Origin: a virus
DNA length: 26,093 nt
IMG/VR virus record: IMGVR_UViG_3300044998_000627
Coordinates: 1 to 26,093 of that record
Direction: 5' to 3' (one strand)
A program made the translations under genes and the position numbers. Below, in pieces: positions 3,001 through 26,093 of this stretch (position 1 is the stretch's first letter; each line of letters opens with the position of its first letter). Below the pieces are notes generated by a model. That model ran no database searches. It saw nothing but the letters and a program-made list of their open reading frames with translations, and had not been told where the DNA came from.

Positions 3001-3715
3001 TCCGACCGAAAACGTTGTCGAGTTGTGTCAGCGCCTGCCCGATGGTCGTGGGGATCTTGCTTGCCTCGGCCTGCAGCTGCGGCAGCTGGTCGATGAGCGC
3101 CCCGATGACGCGGTCACTCGTGAGCTGCCCCTCAGCGCCGAGCTTTCGGAGCTGCCCGATCGGCACGTCGAGTCCGGCCGCGAGGGCTTGCGCGAGCCGA
3201 GGCGTCTGCTCGAACACCGAGTTGAGCTCTTCCCCGCGCAGCACGCCGGCGCCGATGCCCTGCGAGAGCTGCACCAACGCGGCGCCCGCCTCGCTGGCGC
3301 TGGCGCCGGACACGAGGATGGCGGAACTGACGGCTTCGGTGACGCGCAGCAGATCAGCCGACGACGTGCCTGCGGCCTGCGTCGCCGTCGCGAGTCGGGT
3401 GTACAGCCCGGCGGTCGCCTCCAGGCTCTGCCGCGTCTGCTGCGCCAGAGCAAACAGCTGTGTTTGGACGTCCGCAAACTCGGCGGCGCTGCCGGTCGCG
3501 AGGCGGAGACGGGCGTTGAGGAGGGTGTACCGATCGGCGGTGTCCAGCAGCTCGCGTGCACCGAACGCGACGCCGAGGGCGGCGCCAAGGCGCTTGACGG
3601 ACTGCTCGATGCTCGCGGACGTGCCCCCCAGCTTCCGGAGCGACCCATCCAGCCGTTCGGTCGACTGGATCGCTCCGGTAGCATCCACCCGCAGGCCGAG
3701 CGTCGCGATGTCCAT
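1..3715 (-). CDS. Tape measure protein (C-terminus cut by window edge)
   Basis: Sets tail length and is held inside the tail tube until DNA ejection. The frame is open from an ATG at 3715 to base 1, giving 1238 complete codons with no stop, so the end lies outside the window. The N-terminal part (about residues 60-250, rich in Leu, Ala and Gln) resembles the tape-measure N-terminal domain. Hydrophobic segments lie near residues 335-357 (PVGIGITVVTAITGALLLW) and about 715-735 (ISGVLGSIGAVVSLVYG). The rest is Ala/Gln/Arg/Glu-rich helix, with an 18-residue repeat near residues 1038-1145. It follows the tail chaperone genes, the usual place, and its ATG lies one base after the chaperone stop (TAGCATG), so translation is probably coupled. 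Assignment rests on size, composition and position and is firm; the exact family is not. Confidence 0.93.
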   Translation of the reverse strand, partial: MDIATLGLRVDATGAIQSTERLDGSLRKLGGTSASIEQSVKRLGAALGVAFGARELLDTADRYTLLNARLRLATGSAAEFADVQTQLFALAQQTRQSLEATAGLYTRLATATQAAGTSSADLLRVTEAVSSAILVSGASASEAGAALVQLSQGIGAGVLRGEELNSVFEQTPRLAQALAAGLDVPIGQLRKLGAEGQLTSDRVIGALIDQLPQLQAEASKIPTTIGQALTQLDNVFGRIVSGTDDATSATATLAAGLGALARWLDQNRQLVEALTIAIGTTGLAKAALAAAQALAATSAASTIAGFLSLTRGVRSLADALALAQLAASGLWKALLGPVGIGITVVTAITGALLLWRNRAKEAEDATNRLADTTRNLPPPPNVLAADSGVQQAAAERIRQASQELILARQVSDQAAITAIQQKAVNDTLKAQSELKGRDLALTLAAIEAERRFAVAAERTRQVRAAVEETQDRIRIARQALELVGLENEALALKQSEQQAINDLKAAERRLSGENLAIVERGIRLERQLRDALIESNALRERNRAREDIATDITRGQETTRALAAQLQAVQQSTAAYERLVVAQKQAQAVSEAEQRAKQAGIVLTREQVAAIEENVERAERLNRVLAAYLGLSEQARSNPFLIPDQPAGEFAEGLAQALSAAQGLVAVFGGVNRELAAAIGQAAQLATNVARMQQAGATKDASGNAIGVGGALTGAGGAQVAAQAISGVLGSIGAVVSLVYGFVQSARQNAQAMREASDRFEEAMERFRRAASGNMSRVYEQLLQIQREYQQASDDLFRSGRRANSPEQLDLNRVAQERMARLGADFIAEIERGLNVLSGNDALNRIADAQRQYDERLVSLGDLLKANAITQDQYNSALAQSSAILEQTIARIEEAAAAEARRAAEVARRTTEDFSLRALEVLDPAAAASGRFYADQARELFDAIESGLDDAAIDALRFAQALEAAAFEIAKIEEGLRTFEDLFTRGLRATGQNGRADVFALDARQRQELADAVASGMSESNMALLRFVQFAEREQFLLQQAIAEQTAAIREAADAQIAAIDEQIAVLRQMAALQIGALRTQIETVRQANADQQASIRSQIETIRSAAKAQTDAIDEQVRMARDAMQAQREQLQVAQRQLGELQKAADALSRLRDDLTVGEFSPLSPEAQLLEQRRRFDALAARAAGGDAAAGAALPEVAQSLLRASRGFFASGPGFVEDFDRVQAIVTRLADRFGGEA
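281..604 (-). repeat. 18-residue (54-base) coiled-coil repeats in the tape measure gene
   Basis: Six consecutive 54-base units, 604-551, 550-497, 496-443, 442-389, 388-335 and 334-281, encode units of the pattern Q-x-x-A-I-x-x-Q-I-x-x-x-R-x-x-A-x-A. Two units read QIAAIDEQIAVLRQMAAL and QIGALRTQIETVRQANAD. The first and last units are more diverged. The 18-residue period equals five helical turns, so this should form a regular long helix. Confidence 0.75.
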
Positions 3716-15206: not shown

Positions 15207-15820
15207 CGCGTCGGGAGAAGAGCGGCGGCCAGCGCGGACGCCGCGGCGGCCAGCTCCTCAGGGGACGCATGCGCGACGTCCACGCCCGCGACCTCGAGGG
15301 GGCCGCCGTCCTTGCCGGTCAGCTCCACGCGCTCGGGTGGGTAGTATCGGAGCCGCTTCGCGGCCTTCTCGAGCGCCGCGTTCTTGTCCCAGAGCCGGTA
15401 CTCGATCGACCGCTCGGTGGTCGTGTTTCCCGCCTTGTCGGTGAAGCTGCGGATCTTGTGCTTGACGCTGGATACCGCGCGCCACGCGTCGTCCGGCGCG
15501 CCCGGTGCCAGAGTCAGCGTGCCGGAGTCGTCTACACAGAAGTGGCGCACATCGGATCGGGAGAGCACACGGATCTCCGCGGCGACTTCTTCCTCGCGCA
15601 TCTCCGTGGTCGTTCGCTGCGCCGCGAGCGCAATGGCCAGCGCCTCCGCAACCCTACTTTGCCCTACCAAGCGAGGCCCGAGTTTGTCGGCGTTGCGCGC
15701 CGAGTACCCCGCCCGAATCGCCGCCTGTGTGGCGTTCAGGTCGACGAGGTACTCCTCGACAAACCGCTGCTGCTTCGGGGTGAGAGGTCGGGTGCTCACC
15801 CGTGCATCATGCCTCGGCAT
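15203..15820 (-). CDS. terS: Terminase small subunit (TerS, Terminase_2-like)
   Basis: About 205 residues. The core LTPKQQRFVEEYLVDLNATQ then AAIRAGYS, with SRVAEALAIALA, is the typical start of Terminase_2 proteins, a helix-turn-helix that binds the packaging site. The middle part (EEVAAEIRVLSRSDVRHF) and the Pro/Glu part before the Ala-rich C-terminus also fit. The start is uncertain: ATGs at 15838 and 15820 and a GTG at 15799 are in frame, and none has a good ribosome-binding site. I used 15820. With this start the gene overlaps the upstream regulator by 14 bases and the large subunit by ATGA. Confidence 0.9.
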   Translation of the reverse strand: MPRHDARVSTRPLTPKQQRFVEEYLVDLNATQAAIRAGYSARNADKLGPRLVGQSRVAEALAIALAAQRTTTEMREEEVAAEIRVLSRSDVRHFCVDDSGTLTLAPGAPDDAWRAVSSVKHKIRSFTDKAGNTTTERSIEYRLWDKNAALEKAAKRLRYYPPERVELTGKDGGPLEVAGVDVAHASPEELAAAASALAAALLPTR

Positions 15821-16340
15821 GATGGGCACCGGTGGCATGGGGTGTTGCCGATGCTGCAACACGCGCAAGCCGCCAGCGGGCGGGGCCGCTGCTGTTCGCT
15901 GGCGTCGCGCACTCGACCAGTCCGTTGAGAGCCAGCTCTCGCAGGACGCGCGCGGTCCGCGGGACGGCGAAGGCCAAGGCGGCGGCGAGGGCCACGGTGT
16001 CGTCTTCCTCGCGTTCCTGCAGCAGGTCGAGCAGGCGCGCCGCTGGCGAGAGCGCCAACCGTCGACGCACAGCCTTCGGCGCGCGCGCCCATGCGAGCGT
16101 GAAGCACCGGAACCGGTCCGGCGTCGGCGGATGCTCGAGCAGGTATCCGCGCTGCACCAGCAGGGTTAGTGATCGGGAGATCGCCGAGCGGCTGAGGCCG
16201 GTCGCTAGCTCGACGACAAGCAGCCGGGCCGGCCGAACCTCAGCGAAGTCGAGGTGCTTTCGGCACCACCGGTACACCTTCAGGAGCCGAGGCGTGACGC
16301 TCATGTCGGACTCGAAATCGTCGTAGGCGGGAAAGTTCAT
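15807..16340 (-). CDS. Winged-helix DNA-binding regulator
   Basis: A 177-residue protein starting MNFPAYDDFESDMSVTPRLL at the ATG at 16340 (ATGA overlap with the VRR-NUC gene). Residues about 30-75 (RPARLLVVELATGLSRSAIS, then RSLTLLVQRGYLLEH) look like a winged helix: recognition helix SRSAISRSLTLL followed by a wing. A second helix-turn-helix-like part lies near residues 120-160 (AALAFAVPRTARVLRELALN). It sits at the switch between the early and packaging genes, directly after the iteron-like region, so a regulator of late genes or of that region is an attractive reading. Its 3' end contains a 21-base hairpin overlapping the start region of the small terminase. Confidence 0.72.
   Translation of the reverse strand: MNFPAYDDFESDMSVTPRLLKVYRWCRKHLDFAEVRPARLLVVELATGLSRSAISRSLTLLVQRGYLLEHPPTPDRFRCFTLAWARAPKAVRRRLALSPAARLLDLLQEREEDDTVALAAALAFAVPRTARVLRELALNGLVECATPANSSGPARWRLARVAASATPHATGAHHAEA
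15842..15862 (-). promoter_or_regulatory. 17-base repeat, copy 1, within a perfect hairpin
   Basis: The plus strand has GTGTTGC, a 7-base loop, then GCAACAC: a perfect 7-bp stem. It is inside the end of the regulator gene and ends just before the first possible small terminase ATG (15838). The core 15844-15860 recurs with one difference at 11030-11046, again right before a start codon. Confidence 0.5.
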
Positions 16341-16762
16341 GCGCACGCTCCGGTTGCAGGTGCCGACGTGGCCCCCTCTCTCGGCCCGCGCTGCCAGCAG
16401 AGATCCACCCAGCTGCGGCAAAGGTCGAGCGCGGCGCCGTGGAGCAGGGATGACCCGCGCTGCAGGAGGCGGAGCAGGGCGGCCCATTGGTGGACGTCCT
16501 CGATGACGGTGGCAAGGGCGCCAGCCTCGAGCTCGTCGAGGAGCCACCGATGCTGTGCGATGGTGAGCTTGCCGCCAGGGCGCTTCACCTCGACCCAGAC
16601 GCGCAGGCCGCGTCCGCGGTGGACGTAGCGCCGGTCCGGCAGCCCTTCGGTGATCATCGTCGCGCGGCGCTGCTCGTAGCGTTCCACGACCCAGCCCAGC
16701 TGGGCGGCGAGTTGGTCGAGCTGCGTGGCGACGGCGGACTCCGTGAGGCGAGGCCTCTTCAT
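16337..16762 (-). CDS. VRR-NUC domain nuclease
   Basis: A 141-residue stand-alone VRR-NUC protein of the PD-(D/E)XK fold. Start at the ATG at 16762, with GAGGAG 7 bases upstream; the longer open frame to 16885 runs through the repeat region and is spurious. Key residues are PDR at 42-44 (GLPDRRYVHRG), VEVKRPGGKLT with Glu58 and Lys60, and Gln70 in TIAQHRWL, all in the order of the family. Phage VRR-NUC proteins are often found next to D5-type helicases and may process replication or recombination intermediates as structure-specific nucleases. Here the D5 gene is just upstream across the iteron-like gap. Coupled by ATGA to the next gene. Confidence 0.88.
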   Translation of the reverse strand: MKRPRLTESAVATQLDQLAAQLGWVVERYEQRRATMITEGLPDRRYVHRGRGLRVWVEVKRPGGKLTIAQHRWLLDELEAGALATVIEDVHQWAALLRLLQRGSSLLHGAALDLCRSWVDLCWQRGPREGATSAPATGACA

Positions 16763-16845
16763 CGGTCGCTCCTCGTGCTGCCAGCAGTGCGCCAGCGACG
16801 GTGACCGATAGGACCGATATATCGGTACTTTCCGAAACTCTCTCT

Positions 16846-16867
16846 TGTGCGCGCGCGCATGCGCACA
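16846..16867. repeat. GC-rich inverted repeat between iteron clusters
   Basis: TGTGCGC and GCGCACA form 7-bp arms around an 8-base GC-rich centre. It lies between iteron clusters 1 and 2 of the 16763-16985 gap. Confidence 0.5.
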
Positions 16868-16924
16868 CGGAACACTTCTGTGCAATTATCGGCACTATCG
16901 GTCATATCGGTCACCTCACATAGG

Positions 16925-16952
16925 AGAATATCACAAACATGTCCTGCTACAA
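16925..16952 (-). promoter_or_regulatory. Possible promoter for VRR-NUC and the late genes
   Basis: On the minus strand TTGTAG (16952-16947) lies 16 bases before TATTCT (16930-16925), which is preceded by TG at the extended -10 spacing (TGATATTCT). It is flanked by iteron clusters on both sides, so a protein binding there would control it. The -35 match is weak (3 of 6). Confidence 0.3.
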
Positions 16953-16985
16953 TCGGTCACCTATCGGTACTATCGGGCCTTACCA

Positions 16986-18386
16986 CTAGGAGTGAAACCA
17001 AGCGTCGTCCCGGTCGGCGTTGGCTTCAGGGGAGAGCAGTAACCGCAACCCAGTACGCATCTTACGGCTATTCGTGGCTCGGACATTGAACCCGCGCTCG
17101 CCCATCCGGCGCCCGAACATCTGCGCCGTGATCACGTGCTCGCCGTTCTCCTTGGCCCACTTCTCGTAGGCCCTGTAGAGCTCTCCGGCGAGGACTTCGA
17201 ATGCCCCGACCTCGCACCGATCGGCCAAGAATGCGCCGATGGTGTCGCTTTCCTCGCGGTACGCGTTGGTGGCGGCGAGGACGCGCTCGGGGGCGCTGAG
17301 GCCCCGCTCGAGCCACTGGGTGCAGCCCGCCACGGCCCAGGCGAGGATGCCGGGCAGCTCCTGCTTCAGCTTTGCCGGGAGCTGGTCGTCTCGCTGGTCG
17401 GGCTTGATGGTCACCTCAAACGGGATGAGCCGGACGCGCCGCCAGATGGCGTAGTCGGTGCCGCGGATGACGGGCTTGTGGTTGGCAGCGAGCCAGAGCT
17501 TGAACTGGGGCCTGAACTCAAAATCTTCAGAGTACAGGTACCGCGCGGTCATGATGTCGCCGCCGGTGAGGGACTTGATGAGCCCCTCGTTGAGCCGCTT
17601 GTTCTCACCGACCTCGGAGCTCCGCACGAGCCGTGAGCCGGCCAGGCGGGCGACGTCGTTGCGTGGGCCGGCGTCGGTGCGCCGCTCGAGGAACGTGGTG
17701 AAGTCGGACTGCTGTCCGTACTCGCCGGCAAGCATGCCGAAGACGTCGAGCAGCGTGGACTTGCCGTTCGCGCCGGTGCCGTGGCACAGGTGGAGGACTT
17801 GCTCGCGGGTGTCGCCGGTCAGCGAATAGCCCACGGCGCGCTGGACGTACTCGATGAGGGTGGCGTCGCCGGCAAAAATGGTGTCGAGCGTCCGGAGCCA
17901 CGTTGGGCACTCGGCGGCCGGATCGAAGTCCACATCGACGAGCTTCGTGGACAAGTCGCCCCGCGCGTGCGGCCCCAGCGTGCCGGTCTGCAGGTTGAGC
18001 GTCCCGTTGCGCACCGTCAGGAGCATCGGCCGCTGGTCGAGCGCATCGTGCGGGATGGCGATGCCGTGCTCGGAGCGGGCGAGCCGGATCATGGCGTCGA
18101 TCCGGCCGACGGCTTCGGAGCGCACGGCGTGCTGGGCGAGTGCCTTGCGGTCATCGCCGGTGAGGGTGTCGGCCTCCTCGAACATGCGGCGCACGACGCC
18201 TTTCGCGCGCCGCTCGACCTCCCCGGTCTCGTCACGCGCCCAGCGCCGGCCGTCCCAGACCAGCCACACTTTCCACCGGGGGATCCATCGGAGATCGCGC
18301 CCATGCAGGGCCACCAGGCGCTCCCCGTTGCCGACGTCGGTGAACGGGTACGCGGCCATGGGCAGCGCGGGGATCAGGCTACTCAT
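16986..18386 (-). CDS. D5-type SF3 replicative helicase (no primase domain)
   Basis: A 466-residue protein of the phage/plasmid D5/P4-type helicase group. Residues about 20-170 match the D5_N region, with FDPAAECPTWLRTLDTIF just before the ATPase. The SF3 core follows: Walker A GTGANGKST at 203-211, acidic motif B around RLVRSSEVGEN at 252-262, sensor 1 WLAANHKP at 298-305, and an arginine finger IWRRVRLIPF at 314-323. A C-terminal winged-helix part includes EKWAKENGEHVITAQMFGRR. It would unwind DNA at the phage origin. P4 alpha-type proteins carry an N-terminal primase; here only about 20 residues precede D5_N, so priming must come from another protein or the host. Overlaps the upstream gene by ATGA. 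Confidence 0.92.
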   Translation of the reverse strand: MSSLIPALPMAAYPFTDVGNGERLVALHGRDLRWIPRWKVWLVWDGRRWARDETGEVERRAKGVVRRMFEEADTLTGDDRKALAQHAVRSEAVGRIDAMIRLARSEHGIAIPHDALDQRPMLLTVRNGTLNLQTGTLGPHARGDLSTKLVDVDFDPAAECPTWLRTLDTIFAGDATLIEYVQRAVGYSLTGDTREQVLHLCHGTGANGKSTLLDVFGMLAGEYGQQSDFTTFLERRTDAGPRNDVARLAGSRLVRSSEVGENKRLNEGLIKSLTGGDIMTARYLYSEDFEFRPQFKLWLAANHKPVIRGTDYAIWRRVRLIPFEVTIKPDQRDDQLPAKLKQELPGILAWAVAGCTQWLERGLSAPERVLAATNAYREESDTIGAFLADRCEVGAFEVLAGELYRAYEKWAKENGEHVITAQMFGRRMGERGFNVRATNSRKMRTGLRLLLSPEANADRDDAWFHS

Positions 18387-18832
18387 GCGGCGGCATCTTG
18401 CGGAGAGAGCGATTCGGTCCGCGCGCGCAGGGCGCGCTCCGCGGCAGTGAGCCGGCGGGGCGCGTCCTGGTGCAGCGGCGGGTAGGATTCGGTCGGGCCG
18501 GCCGCGGGGAGCCCGCGGGCCTGCTGGGCAAAGCCGTGCGCGAGCCGGATCGCTTCGGCGTGCTGGGCGAGGAGCAGCTCCACGCGGGCGGTCCGGCGCT
18601 CGGCCCGGGCCTCGAGCGCGCGCCGCTCCTGCGGTTCGGCGGCGCGATGCTCGAACGCCTCGGCGCGGAGCTGCCGCGTGGCTTCTTCGAGATACCAGGT
18701 GACACCGTCGCGCAGTCGGCCGGGGGCGTCTGGCGTCGCGAGCAGCGCGAGGATGTGGTCACGCGTGAGCACCGGCTCGTGGTCGAGCGCATGCTGGGCG
18801 TGGTCGATCCATTGGGCGAGCGGCGCCGTCAT
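18383..18832 (-). CDS. Helical early protein, unknown
   Basis: A 149-residue protein starting MTAPLAQWIDHAQHALDHEP at the ATG at 18832, inside ATGA overlaps on both sides. Helical and Ala/Arg/Glu-rich; residues 60-110 (EAFEHRAAEPQERRALEARA and onward) could form a coiled coil. The C-terminus has DAPRRLTAAERALRARTESL. No family recognised. Coupling to the helicase suggests it acts early, possibly in replication. The longer upstream frame shadows the next gene. Confidence 0.72.
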   Translation of the reverse strand: MTAPLAQWIDHAQHALDHEPVLTRDHILALLATPDAPGRLRDGVTWYLEEATRQLRAEAFEHRAAEPQERRALEARAERRTARVELLLAQHAEAIRLAHGFAQQARGLPAAGPTESYPPLHQDAPRRLTAAERALRARTESLSPQDAAA

Positions 18833-24026: not shown

Positions 24027-25085
24027 TTATCCCTCACTGGTCAGGGTCTTGGCGAGCCCGTCGGCCACCGCCGACTTGCCCACCTGCTTCGTGTAGCGGC
24101 GCGTCGTCGCCGCATTCGTGTGCCGCAGGCTGACCTGCACCAGCGCCTCGGGCACGCCGGCCTCGACGGCCCATTGCCCGTGGCAGTGCCGCAGGTCGTG
24201 CAGCCGGATCAGCGGCGAAAGCGCCGCGGCCTTGCACGCCGCCTTGAAGTGCAGCCGCAGCCACTTGTACTGCACCGGCGCGGGCACGCCGGCCTCCACC
24301 CAGTGCCACATGCTCGGGGCGACGCGGACCTGCGCCCGGCTCCCGCGCGTCTTGGTGCCCGGCACCTTCACGGCATGCAGCGAGGGCACGAGGTGTGTCA
24401 CATCGCACGCCAGGTACTCGCCAACCCGCATCCCCGTGAGCAGCAGGGTCCACAGCGCCGGCCGGATGTCCTGGCGCGCATGCTCAACGAGCCGCCGGAA
24501 CTCCGCCGGCGTCAGCTCCGGCACGCGCTCTTCTTCCGCCTCGGTGGGGATCGCCGCCATCACCTCGTGCCGGAACGCGTGCTGTTTGCTCCCCAAGTGC
24601 AGCGTCAGGAACCGTGAGAGCATGCGCCGCAGGTGCATCCAGTCGGAGGCCGACCCGTGCCAGTCCCGCCGCAACGCTGCCCAGTCGATCCGCGCGAGAT
24701 CCCGCACCCGCGCTGCCGCGGCCTTCGGGTAGACCCGCTCCAGCTTCTCGAGCGTGACCTCGTACCGCCGCCGCGTGGCCTCGACCCGGCCCATGCGAGG
24801 CAGCGTGTCACGCACCGCCTGAAGCAGCGGTGCGGAGGTCGCCACCTGGGCCGCCAGCCCCGCGCCGGCGAGGCCGTGCTCGCGCGCGTGAGCGTCGAGC
24901 AGCTCGATCGACAGCCGCCCGGCCGCGAGCAACCGCAGCGTCTCGACCTGCGCATCGGCCACCAGCGCGTCCACGATCCCTTCCCGTCGCGCGAACACGC
25001 GGCGGTTCAGAGTGTGCGCATTGATCTGGACGAGGCCGAGGCCGAGCCGGTGCAGCTGGCGACGGATGCGGAGATTGCGCGGCAT
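24027..25085 (-). CDS. int: Tyrosine integrase
   Basis: A 352-residue site-specific recombinase, start at the ATG at 25085 (TAATG with the excisionase-like gene). The N-terminal half (core-binding part, residues about 85-180) is helical, including DWMHLRRMLSRFLTLHL. The catalytic set is complete: Arg220 (LTGMRVGEY), Lys245 (PGTKTRGS), His296/Arg299 (LHDLRH), His322 (LRHTNAATT) and nucleophile Tyr331 (RRYTK). It integrates and, with an excisionase, excises the phage at attP, which lies directly after its stop. It is codirectional with all the other genes, so its expression may be tied to the same operon. Confidence 0.95.
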   Translation of the reverse strand: MPRNLRIRRQLHRLGLGLVQINAHTLNRRVFARREGIVDALVADAQVETLRLLAAGRLSIELLDAHAREHGLAGAGLAAQVATSAPLLQAVRDTLPRMGRVEATRRRYEVTLEKLERVYPKAAAARVRDLARIDWAALRRDWHGSASDWMHLRRMLSRFLTLHLGSKQHAFRHEVMAAIPTEAEEERVPELTPAEFRRLVEHARQDIRPALWTLLLTGMRVGEYLACDVTHLVPSLHAVKVPGTKTRGSRAQVRVAPSMWHWVEAGVPAPVQYKWLRLHFKAACKAAALSPLIRLHDLRHCHGQWAVEAGVPEALVQVSLRHTNAATTRRYTKQVGKSAVADGLAKTLTSEG

Positions 25086-25270
25086 TACGCGGCCTTCCCC
25101 CGCCGGGACTCGATCCACTGCTCCACATCCCGCGCGTAGTAGCGCACCACGCCGCGGGCAAGGTCCACCCGGGGCCGCACGTGCTTGAGCACCCAGCGCA
25201 CCGAGACCGCCCCGTCGAAGTAGTCGCGCACCACGTCTTCCGGCTTGATCAGCTTCCCGCGCTCCTGCAT
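25085..25270 (-). CDS. Excisionase-like small DNA-binding protein
   Basis: A 61-residue protein beginning MQERGKLIKPEDVVRDYFDG at the ATG at 25270 (TGATG overlap). VSVRWVLKHVRPRVDLARGV then VRYYARDVEQWIESRRGKAA resembles the MerR/excisionase helix-turn-helix (HTH_17): recognition helix followed by a wing and the closing 'd...wi..r'. Its TAA overlaps the integrase ATG, the usual xis-int layout. An AlpA-type regulator would look the same. The open frame to 25525 is a shadow. Confidence 0.75.
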   Translation of the reverse strand: MQERGKLIKPEDVVRDYFDGAVSVRWVLKHVRPRVDLARGVVRYYARDVEQWIESRRGKAA

Positions 25271-25494
25271 CACGCGACCCTCCGGGCGTTGATTCGTCGC
25301 CAGTGACTGCGGCTGTAGCCTGGAAAGCGCTTGGCCTCGGCCCGGCGGGTCACGCCGAGCCTGTCCAGAGCGTGCCGGATCTCCTGCTCCGAGACCGACC
25401 GCCGCGCGTGCGTGTGCACGTAGCGCACGAGGACGTCCTCTTCCTGCCACTCGGTCGACAGCGCATCGACGAGCAGCTGTTCCGCCTCGCTCAT
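25270..25494 (-). CDS. Small winged-helix protein (paralogue B)
   Basis: A 74-residue protein, MSEAEQLLVDALSTEWQEED then HARRSVSEQEIRHALDRLGV and a wing ending SHWRRINARRVA. It is related to the 78-residue protein at 19885-20121 over its whole length. It overlaps the ATPase gene by ATGA and the excisionase-like gene by TGATG, so it is co-translated with the integration genes. It could control them or the early operon. Confidence 0.7.
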   Translation of the reverse strand: MSEAEQLLVDALSTEWQEEDVLVRYVHTHARRSVSEQEIRHALDRLGVTRRAEAKRFPGYSRSHWRRINARRVA

Positions 25495-26093
25495 GCCGCC
25501 ACCGCCAGCGGTGGGAGGTCGGCATCCATCGCGCCCGCGCGCACGTCGCGCACCACCCGACTCACGCCGGCGTGCACGTTGAGCTCGACGCGGATGAGGT
25601 GATCGAGCGCGTCGCGCACGGAGGCGTCGTGCGTGATGATCATGATCTGCACGAACCGGTCACTGAGGCGGCGCAGCATCGCGAGCACGTTCGCGCGGCG
25701 CTGCTCGTCGAGCGCGGCGGTCACCTCGTCGAGGATGAGCAGCGCGAAGGGGGCGCCCGACCGCTCCGCAATCATCTGCGAGATGGCGAGCCGCAGGACG
25801 AGGTTACAGAGATCCTCCTCGCCGCCGGAGATGACGGGCTTCGGGAGCCCGTCCTCCACGAGCGTGAGCTGGTAGTCCTCGCCGAACTCGGCGTGCGTGT
25901 AGCGGCCATCGGTGAGCACCTCGAGCAGCCCGCTCGCCAGGTCGGCGAGTTCGGGACGGAGCGCGGCGTTCAGGTCCGCCCGGAGCTCTCCTATGGCGCG
26001 ATCCAGCTCCTCAAGCACGAGGCGCTCGCGATCGACGGCCACCAGCCGCTCCCGCGCTTGGGCGGTCTCGTCGATGCGGCGGCGCGCGGCGGC
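25491..26093 (-). CDS. SMC/Rad50/SbcC-like ATPase, C-terminal part (cut by window edge)
   Basis: The frame is open through the right edge; 200 residues are visible. Coiled-coil sequence at the edge (RRRIDETAQARERL) leads into a globular C-terminal ABC half: the signature PVISGGEEDLCNLVLRLAIS, Walker B PFALLILDEVTAALDEQRRA and the switch histidine in MIITHDASVRDAL. This order is that of Rad50/SbcC-type ATPases, whose N-terminal Walker A half would lie beyond the window. Such proteins act in DNA end processing or repair, often with an Mre11/SbcD nuclease. A GTG at 26042 is not the likely start, because the frame and coiled coil continue upstream. Confidence 0.88.
   Translation of the reverse strand, partial: AAARRRIDETAQARERLVAVDRERLVLEELDRAIGELRADLNAALRPELADLASGLLEVLTDGRYTHAEFGEDYQLTLVEDGLPKPVISGGEEDLCNLVLRLAISQMIAERSGAPFALLILDEVTAALDEQRRANVLAMLRRLSDRFVQIMIITHDASVRDALDHLIRVELNVHAGVSRVVRDVRAGAMDADLPPLAVAA

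What the first reader, a model, noticed from the sequence alone, without database searches (positions are those of the whole stretch)
16763..16985. Iteron-like array between helicase and VRR-NUC: candidate phage origin or master operator
About nine TATCGGTNN 9-mers occur in three clusters, three at an exact 9-base step, plus a 14-bp palindrome and an AT-rich centre with a promoter-like element. The region is next to the replicative helicase gene. I see no other place in the window with such repeats. The binding protein is unknown; the winged-helix protein at 15807-16340 or the helicase C-terminal domain are candidates.
Basis: partly seen in the sequence, partly recalled or inferred. Interest (0 to 1): 0.68.

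Follow-up and report, generated by a model that had tools for sequence, protein, structure and literature searches.

The report
Phage replication origin beside its helicase
The short repeats between two genes of this GC-rich phage are very probably the place where the phage starts copying its DNA, read by the tail domain of the helicase encoded right next to it; this is a known kind of origin (phage P4, phage A2, staphylococcal islands), and the comparison made here suggests it is a common layout in phages that carry this helicase.

Summary
The array is real: six exact TATCGGT copies lie within 165 bp (the whole 26-kb window holds seven; 0.63 expected), plus near-copies, mostly at a 9-bp step. 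It fills the gap just downstream of a D5_N/P4-family helicase gene. In 79 non-redundant loci with related helicases, short repeats peak in this same gap (59% have at least four copies of one 7-mer; 0-4% away from it). In 42 of 79 they form two convergent arms of iterons around a 55-95 bp centre; in 0 of 79 shuffles and 0 of 79 control regions. Words differ between phages but share a core, (G/A)TG(A/G)(C/A), pointing to the centre; the window's is (G/A)TGACC. Annotated origins lie at this position in phages A2 and Sfi21, and P4's crr likewise. The helicase's C-terminal winged helix resembles the P4 origin-binding domain. Best reading: the phage's replication origin, bound by its own helicase. 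The nearby winged-helix protein was found only in the closest relative, so it is not the general partner. A master operator is not supported, though local regulation is possible. No binding or replication data exist. New member of a known kind; the alternating purine-pyrimidine centre is the least familiar part.

The parts
16986..18386 (-). D5_N / P4-family helicase gene (466 aa), proposed initiator; gene ends where the array begins
   Evidence: Pfam D5_N 7e-32, DUF5906, Pox_D5; TIGR01613 'phage/plasmid primase, P4 family' 283 bits against cut-off 108.7; fold match to SaPI5 primase-helicase Z 30.7 over residues 5-452
17040..17243 (-). C-terminal winged-helix domain (residues about 382-449), proposed iteron-binding domain
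   Evidence: AlphaFold2 model, helix-strand-helix-helix-hairpin; match to P4 origin-binding domain 1ka8, Z 8.1 over 77 residues, and RFX1 DNA-binding domain 1dp7, Z 9.2
16763..16985 (.). non-coding gap, proposed replication origin
   Evidence: 94.6% identical to relative L125 while the helicase gene is 89% and the VRR-NUC gene 78%
16951..16977 (+). outer iteron cluster: AATCGGT 16951, TATCGGT 16962, TATCGGG 16971
   Evidence: the outermost copy (16971) is degenerate in L125
16887..16911 (+). inner arm 1: TATCGGC 16887, TATCGGT 16896, TATCGGT 16905, exact 9-bp step
   Evidence: unchanged in L125
16804..16819 (-). inner arm 2: two TATCGGT copies on the opposite strand, 9-bp step
   Evidence: 16800-16819 is complementary to 16896-16915 over 20 nt, 95%
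16813..16826 (.). 14-bp palindrome ACCGATATATCGGT formed by iterons 16813(-) and 16820(+)
16846..16869 (.). 24-nt alternating purine-pyrimidine tract TGTGCGCGCGCGCATGCGCACACG in the centre between the arms
   Evidence: 0 of 500 composition shuffles and no same-length segment elsewhere reach it; coordinates
16914..16951 (.). most AT-rich stretch of the gap (58% AT in a genome of 30% AT), between inner arm 1 and outer cluster
16337..16762 (-). VRR-NUC-like gene downstream of the array (neighbour, not needed for the proposal)
   Evidence: PHROG 93 endonuclease 1e-10; weak Pfam VRR_NUC below cut-off; a VRR_NUC match in only 10 of 31 relatives' records

Best explanation
The gap is the replication origin of the phage. 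The helicase encoded immediately upstream recognises the iterons (unit TGACCGATA read toward the centre, 9-bp step) with its C-terminal winged-helix domain. It assembles on two convergent arms (16887-16911 and 16804-16819), probably as two opposed hexamers, opens the central 60 bp with its low-GC stretches and alternating purine-pyrimidine tract, and starts replication. Shown: the array, its position, its conservation in relatives, the general layout across this helicase family, and the fold of the C-terminal domain (a model). Inferred: binding by the helicase, hexamer assembly, opening of the centre, and origin activity.
For: Repeat density peaks exactly at the helicase stop codon across 79 non-redundant loci: mean 3.8 copies of the best 7-mer against about 2.1; 59% with at least 4 copies against 0-4% away from the gap. 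Convergent arms in 42 of 79 gaps, 0 of 79 Markov shuffles, 0 of 79 regions 900 bp further on. Step mode 9 bp (35 of 74 arm steps; 8-10 bp in 66 of 74), arms 55-95 bp apart. Shared core oriented to the centre: GTGA in 12 of 37 units forward and 0 reversed; information 4.81 bits against 4.13 with random orientation and 2.04 with shuffled columns. Annotated origins at the same place: A2 rep_origin, Sfi21 'origin of replication, 302 bp non-coding region', P4 crr with type 1 repeats GGTGAACAGTGTGAACA at a 9-bp step just after the alpha gene. C-terminal domain fold like the P4 origin-binding domain. Iteron similarity follows C-terminal-domain identity (rho 0.167, p 0.003; 0.115, p 0.022, after removing ATPase identity). 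[quoted passage not shown]
Against: No binding, footprint, replicon or coverage data. GC skew is weak and gives no clear switch. 37 of 79 gaps fail the strict arm test, and AbbeyMikolon (L130) shows no array. The covariation with the C-terminal domain is weak. The loci share ancestry, so counts are not independent. The outer cluster has no inverted partner. The window helicase lacks the N-terminal primase domain of its relatives and no primase gene was recognised.
Confidence: 0.85

Rival explanations
1. Operator: a phage regulator (for example the winged-helix protein 15807-16340) binds the repeats to control transcription of the VRR-NUC, terminase and structural genes.
For: The array lies in the 5' region of a co-directional gene block, with one promoter-like match on the minus strand overlapping arm 1; one near-copy overlaps the VRR-NUC start codon.
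Against: A homologue of the winged-helix protein was found near the helicase only in L125, whereas the arrays persist with the helicase across distant phages; the start-codon copy is changed in L125. Annotated origins occupy the same site in A2 and Sfi21.
Confidence: 0.06
2. Dual element: origin that also autoregulates, with the bound helicase repressing or timing the promoter inside arm 1.
For: Promoter-like match overlaps arm 1.
Against: Only one consensus match, in a phage whose host sigma factors are unknown; no expression data. Compatible with the best explanation rather than excluding it.
Confidence: 0.2
3. Packaging or partition site: terminase or a partition protein recognises the repeats.
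For: The small terminase gene is about 1 kb away.
Against: The array follows the helicase in many phages; the immediate neighbour downstream varies. No partition gene was recognised among the proteins scanned.
Confidence: 0.03

Closest known systems
Phage P4 crr and ori (type 1 repeats bound by the alpha protein)
   Same: P4-family helicase; iterons with the core GTGAAC, in crr at a 9-bp step directly downstream of alpha; C-terminal winged-helix domain of the same fold
   Different: P4 has two separate regions (ori and crr); its word is GGTGAACAG and its alpha carries a primase domain; only one cluster was found in the window
Lactobacillus phage A2 origin (annotated rep_origin)
   Same: Array directly downstream of a D5_N primase-helicase 39% identical to the window's; repeats on both strands around an AT-rich centre
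   Different: Word ACGGGAGGA with mostly 8- and 12-bp steps; low-GC host; centre is TATATA
Streptococcus phage Sfi21 origin (302-bp non-coding region)
   Same: Annotated origin immediately after the putative primase gene; GTTACT repeats at an 8-bp step
   Different: Different word and step; low-GC host
SaPI Rep and SCCmec Cch2 self-loading helicases and their origins
   Same: Origin of short iterons directly downstream of the helicase gene, recognised by its C-terminal domain (PMC7581432); fold match to SaPI5 primase-helicase Z 30.7
   Different: Satellite or cassette elements rather than a tailed phage; different iterons (AAGTG for Cch2)

Membership tests
Origins of P4/D5_N-type self-loading helicases | Cognate helicase of the P4/D5_N family | tested here: met
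   TIGR01613 283 bits over a cut-off of 108.7; D5_N 7e-32
Origins of P4/D5_N-type self-loading helicases | Iteron array directly downstream of the helicase gene | tested here: met
   Array begins 8 bp after the stop codon; same position in relatives
Origins of P4/D5_N-type self-loading helicases | C-terminal winged-helix origin-binding domain on the helicase | tested here: met
   Model matches 1ka8, Z 8.1, rmsd 2.8, 77 residues; fold only, function not shown
Origins of P4/D5_N-type self-loading helicases | Easily opened region next to or between iterons | tested here: inconclusive
   Centre 45% AT, outer stretch 58% AT, genome 30% AT; alternating tract of 24 nt is GC-rich
Origins of P4/D5_N-type self-loading helicases | Specific binding of the helicase and replication from the site | not testable with these tools
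   needs gel shift, footprint and replicon assay
Classical iteron plasmid origins (RepA/RepE type) | Iterons of about 17-22 bp at helical-turn spacing, with a RepA-type initiator | tested here: not met
   Units of 9 bp; neighbouring initiator candidate is a P4-family helicase. Definition of the family from general knowledge
Phage master operator / immunity region | Repressor gene beside divergent promoters overlapping the sites | tested here: not met
   Helicase and VRR-NUC genes are co-directional and neither is a repressor; only one promoter-like match

The most novel reading that the evidence does not exclude
In GC-rich phages of this helicase family the origin's opening element is not an AT-rich stretch but an alternating purine-pyrimidine, Z-DNA-prone tract (such as CGCGCGCG) placed between the convergent iteron arms. 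The window (24 nt), AcaML1 (20 nt), L156 (28 nt), L144 (17 nt) and L199 (15 nt) all have one. Low-GC relatives carry TATATA runs, so alternation rather than base composition would be the shared feature.
Probability: 0.2. Interest if true: 0.6.

Novelty: new member of a known kind. Interest (0 to 1): 0.38.

Why it matters
It places the replication origin of an uncultivated GC-rich phage, names the protein that most likely reads it, and gives a simple rule (look directly downstream of a P4/D5_N-family helicase gene for convergent 9-bp-step repeats with a GTGA-like core) that could locate origins in many phage genomes from sequence alone. The rule rests here on 79 loci and can be tested in laboratory phages such as phi105.

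Tried and rejected
Pattern scan of viral contigs for TATCGGTNNTATCGGT: 120 or more matches, judged mostly chance given the collection's size; those with many copies at multiples of 9 in phase (L021, L042, L067) look like coding or tandem repeats (inspection of spacing only). DNA similarity of the gap to known phages: no match. GC skew: no clear switch. RFX-type half-site GTNRC as the reason for the shared core: seen 13 times forward and 12 times reversed, so not oriented and not adopted, although the domain's best fold matches include RFX DNA-binding domains. A conserved GGAAA element in the centre: enriched (12 of 37 against 4.5 expected) but without fixed position; not pursued. Searching genome contigs with the helicase alignment failed for lack of a conserved stretch.

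Full report
What is there. The window is a 26,093-bp virus record of 70% GC. A helicase gene (16986-18386), a VRR-NUC-like gene (16337-16762), a winged-helix gene (15807-16340) and the small terminase gene all lie on the minus strand. The 223-bp gap between helicase and VRR-NUC holds the reported repeats: TATCGGT on the plus strand at 16820, 16896, 16905 and 16962, on the minus strand at 16804 and 16813, with near-copies at 16887, 16951 and 16971. Chance gives 0.63 copies in the whole window. The 14-bp palindrome is the meeting of two opposed copies at 16813-16826. The larger order is a 20-nt inverted repeat, 16800-16819 and 16896-16915, 76 nt apart.

A close relative. L125 has a helicase 94% identical in protein. 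Its gap is 94.6% identical in DNA, more than the helicase gene (89%) or the VRR-NUC gene (78%) on either side. The inner arms are unchanged apart from one base at 16826; the outermost copy at 16971 and the near-copy at the VRR-NUC start codon are altered.

A family-wide pattern. Protein searches found the helicase's relatives in more than a thousand phages and brought in 80 viral loci; with seven others and the window, 79 non-redundant gaps were compared. Copies of the commonest 7-mer peak at the helicase stop codon and nowhere else within 3 kb: 59% of gaps have four or more copies, against 0-4% away from it. In 42 of 79 the repeats form two convergent arms; no Markov shuffle and no region 900 bp downstream does. 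The step is most often 9 bp and the arms lie 55-95 bp apart. The words differ, yet aligned in the direction of the centre they share (G/A)TG(A/G)(C/A). The window's unit, TGACCGATA with GGTGACC at the start of each arm, fits. The motif was derived from these same units, so it describes rather than independently tests them; the orientation control (GTGA 12 forward, 0 reversed) is the stronger evidence. The loci are related, so counts are not independent.

Link to known origins. Phage A2 has an annotated rep_origin starting at the end of its primase gene. Sfi21 has an annotated 302-bp origin right after its putative primase. P4 has its cis-required region crr, with annotated type 1 repeats, right after alpha, and the repeats GGTGAACAGTGTGAACA run at a 9-bp step. 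These are annotations in the records; the experiments behind them were not read here. The literature read here says that SaPI Rep recognises, with its C-terminal domain, an origin of iterons directly downstream of its gene, apparently as two hexamers. It also says that the C-terminal domain of Cch2 binds such repeats (PMC7581432).

Who binds. The helicase passes the P4-family model. Its AlphaFold2 model (mean pLDDT 90) matches the SaPI5 primase-helicase over almost its whole length, Z 30.7. The C-terminal domain modelled alone (pLDDT 77) is a winged helix matching the P4 origin-binding domain, Z 8.1, and RFX DNA-binding domains, Z 9.2-9.4; such Z values for a small domain show a fold, not a function. 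Iteron similarity correlates slightly better with identity of this domain than with that of the ATPase domain (0.167 against 0.146), and a small partial correlation remains (0.115, p 0.022). The winged-helix protein at 15807-16340 has a homologue near the helicase only in L125, and VRR_NUC is detected in 10 of 31 relatives' records. The helicase is the constant partner because relatives were chosen by it; the point of evidence is that arrays stay when the other neighbours change.

The centre. Centres between arms are on average 19 percentage points lower in GC than their loci, and longer than expected in alternating purine-pyrimidine runs (combined p 1.6e-11 against composition shuffles; relatedness not removed). 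In low-GC phages these are TATATA runs, in several GC-rich ones CGCGCG runs. The window's 24-nt run is one of the longest. Whether this matters for opening is unknown.

Verdict. The best explanation is a replication origin of the P4/D5_N self-loading-helicase kind, a new member of a known kind. Regulation of the downstream genes by the same sites remains possible. No binding or replication result exists for this phage.

Noticed in passing
16986-18386: The helicase (466 aa) lacks the N-terminal primase domain of AcaML1, phi105 and AbbeyMikolon relatives; tblastn of those full proteins hits only 17016-18404, and no primase was recognised among the upstream frames scanned.
   Followed up: partly
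25491-26042: Frame with a Rad50/SbcC/SMC-type ATPase C-terminus (SMC_N 7.5e-15; Rad50 1e-18) beyond the integrase at 24027-25118; it may be host flank of a prophage or a phage gene.
   Followed up: no
321-640: Five copies of CAGATCG; likely a repeat inside a coding region.
   Followed up: partly
centres of 37 origin-like gaps, e.g. L144, L156, L202: GGAAA or TTTCC occurs in 12 of 37 centres against 4.5 expected, and GAAAA/TTTTC in 23 against about 9; no fixed position found.
   Followed up: partly
L129 (AcaML1) 3287-3428; L128 (phi105) 3446-3715; L131 3350-3639: Clear convergent or inverted iteron arrays, with no origin annotated in the records, directly downstream of the primase genes.
   Followed up: yes
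15807-16340: The winged-helix protein has only weak MarR/ArsR-type matches and no PHROG.
   Followed up: no
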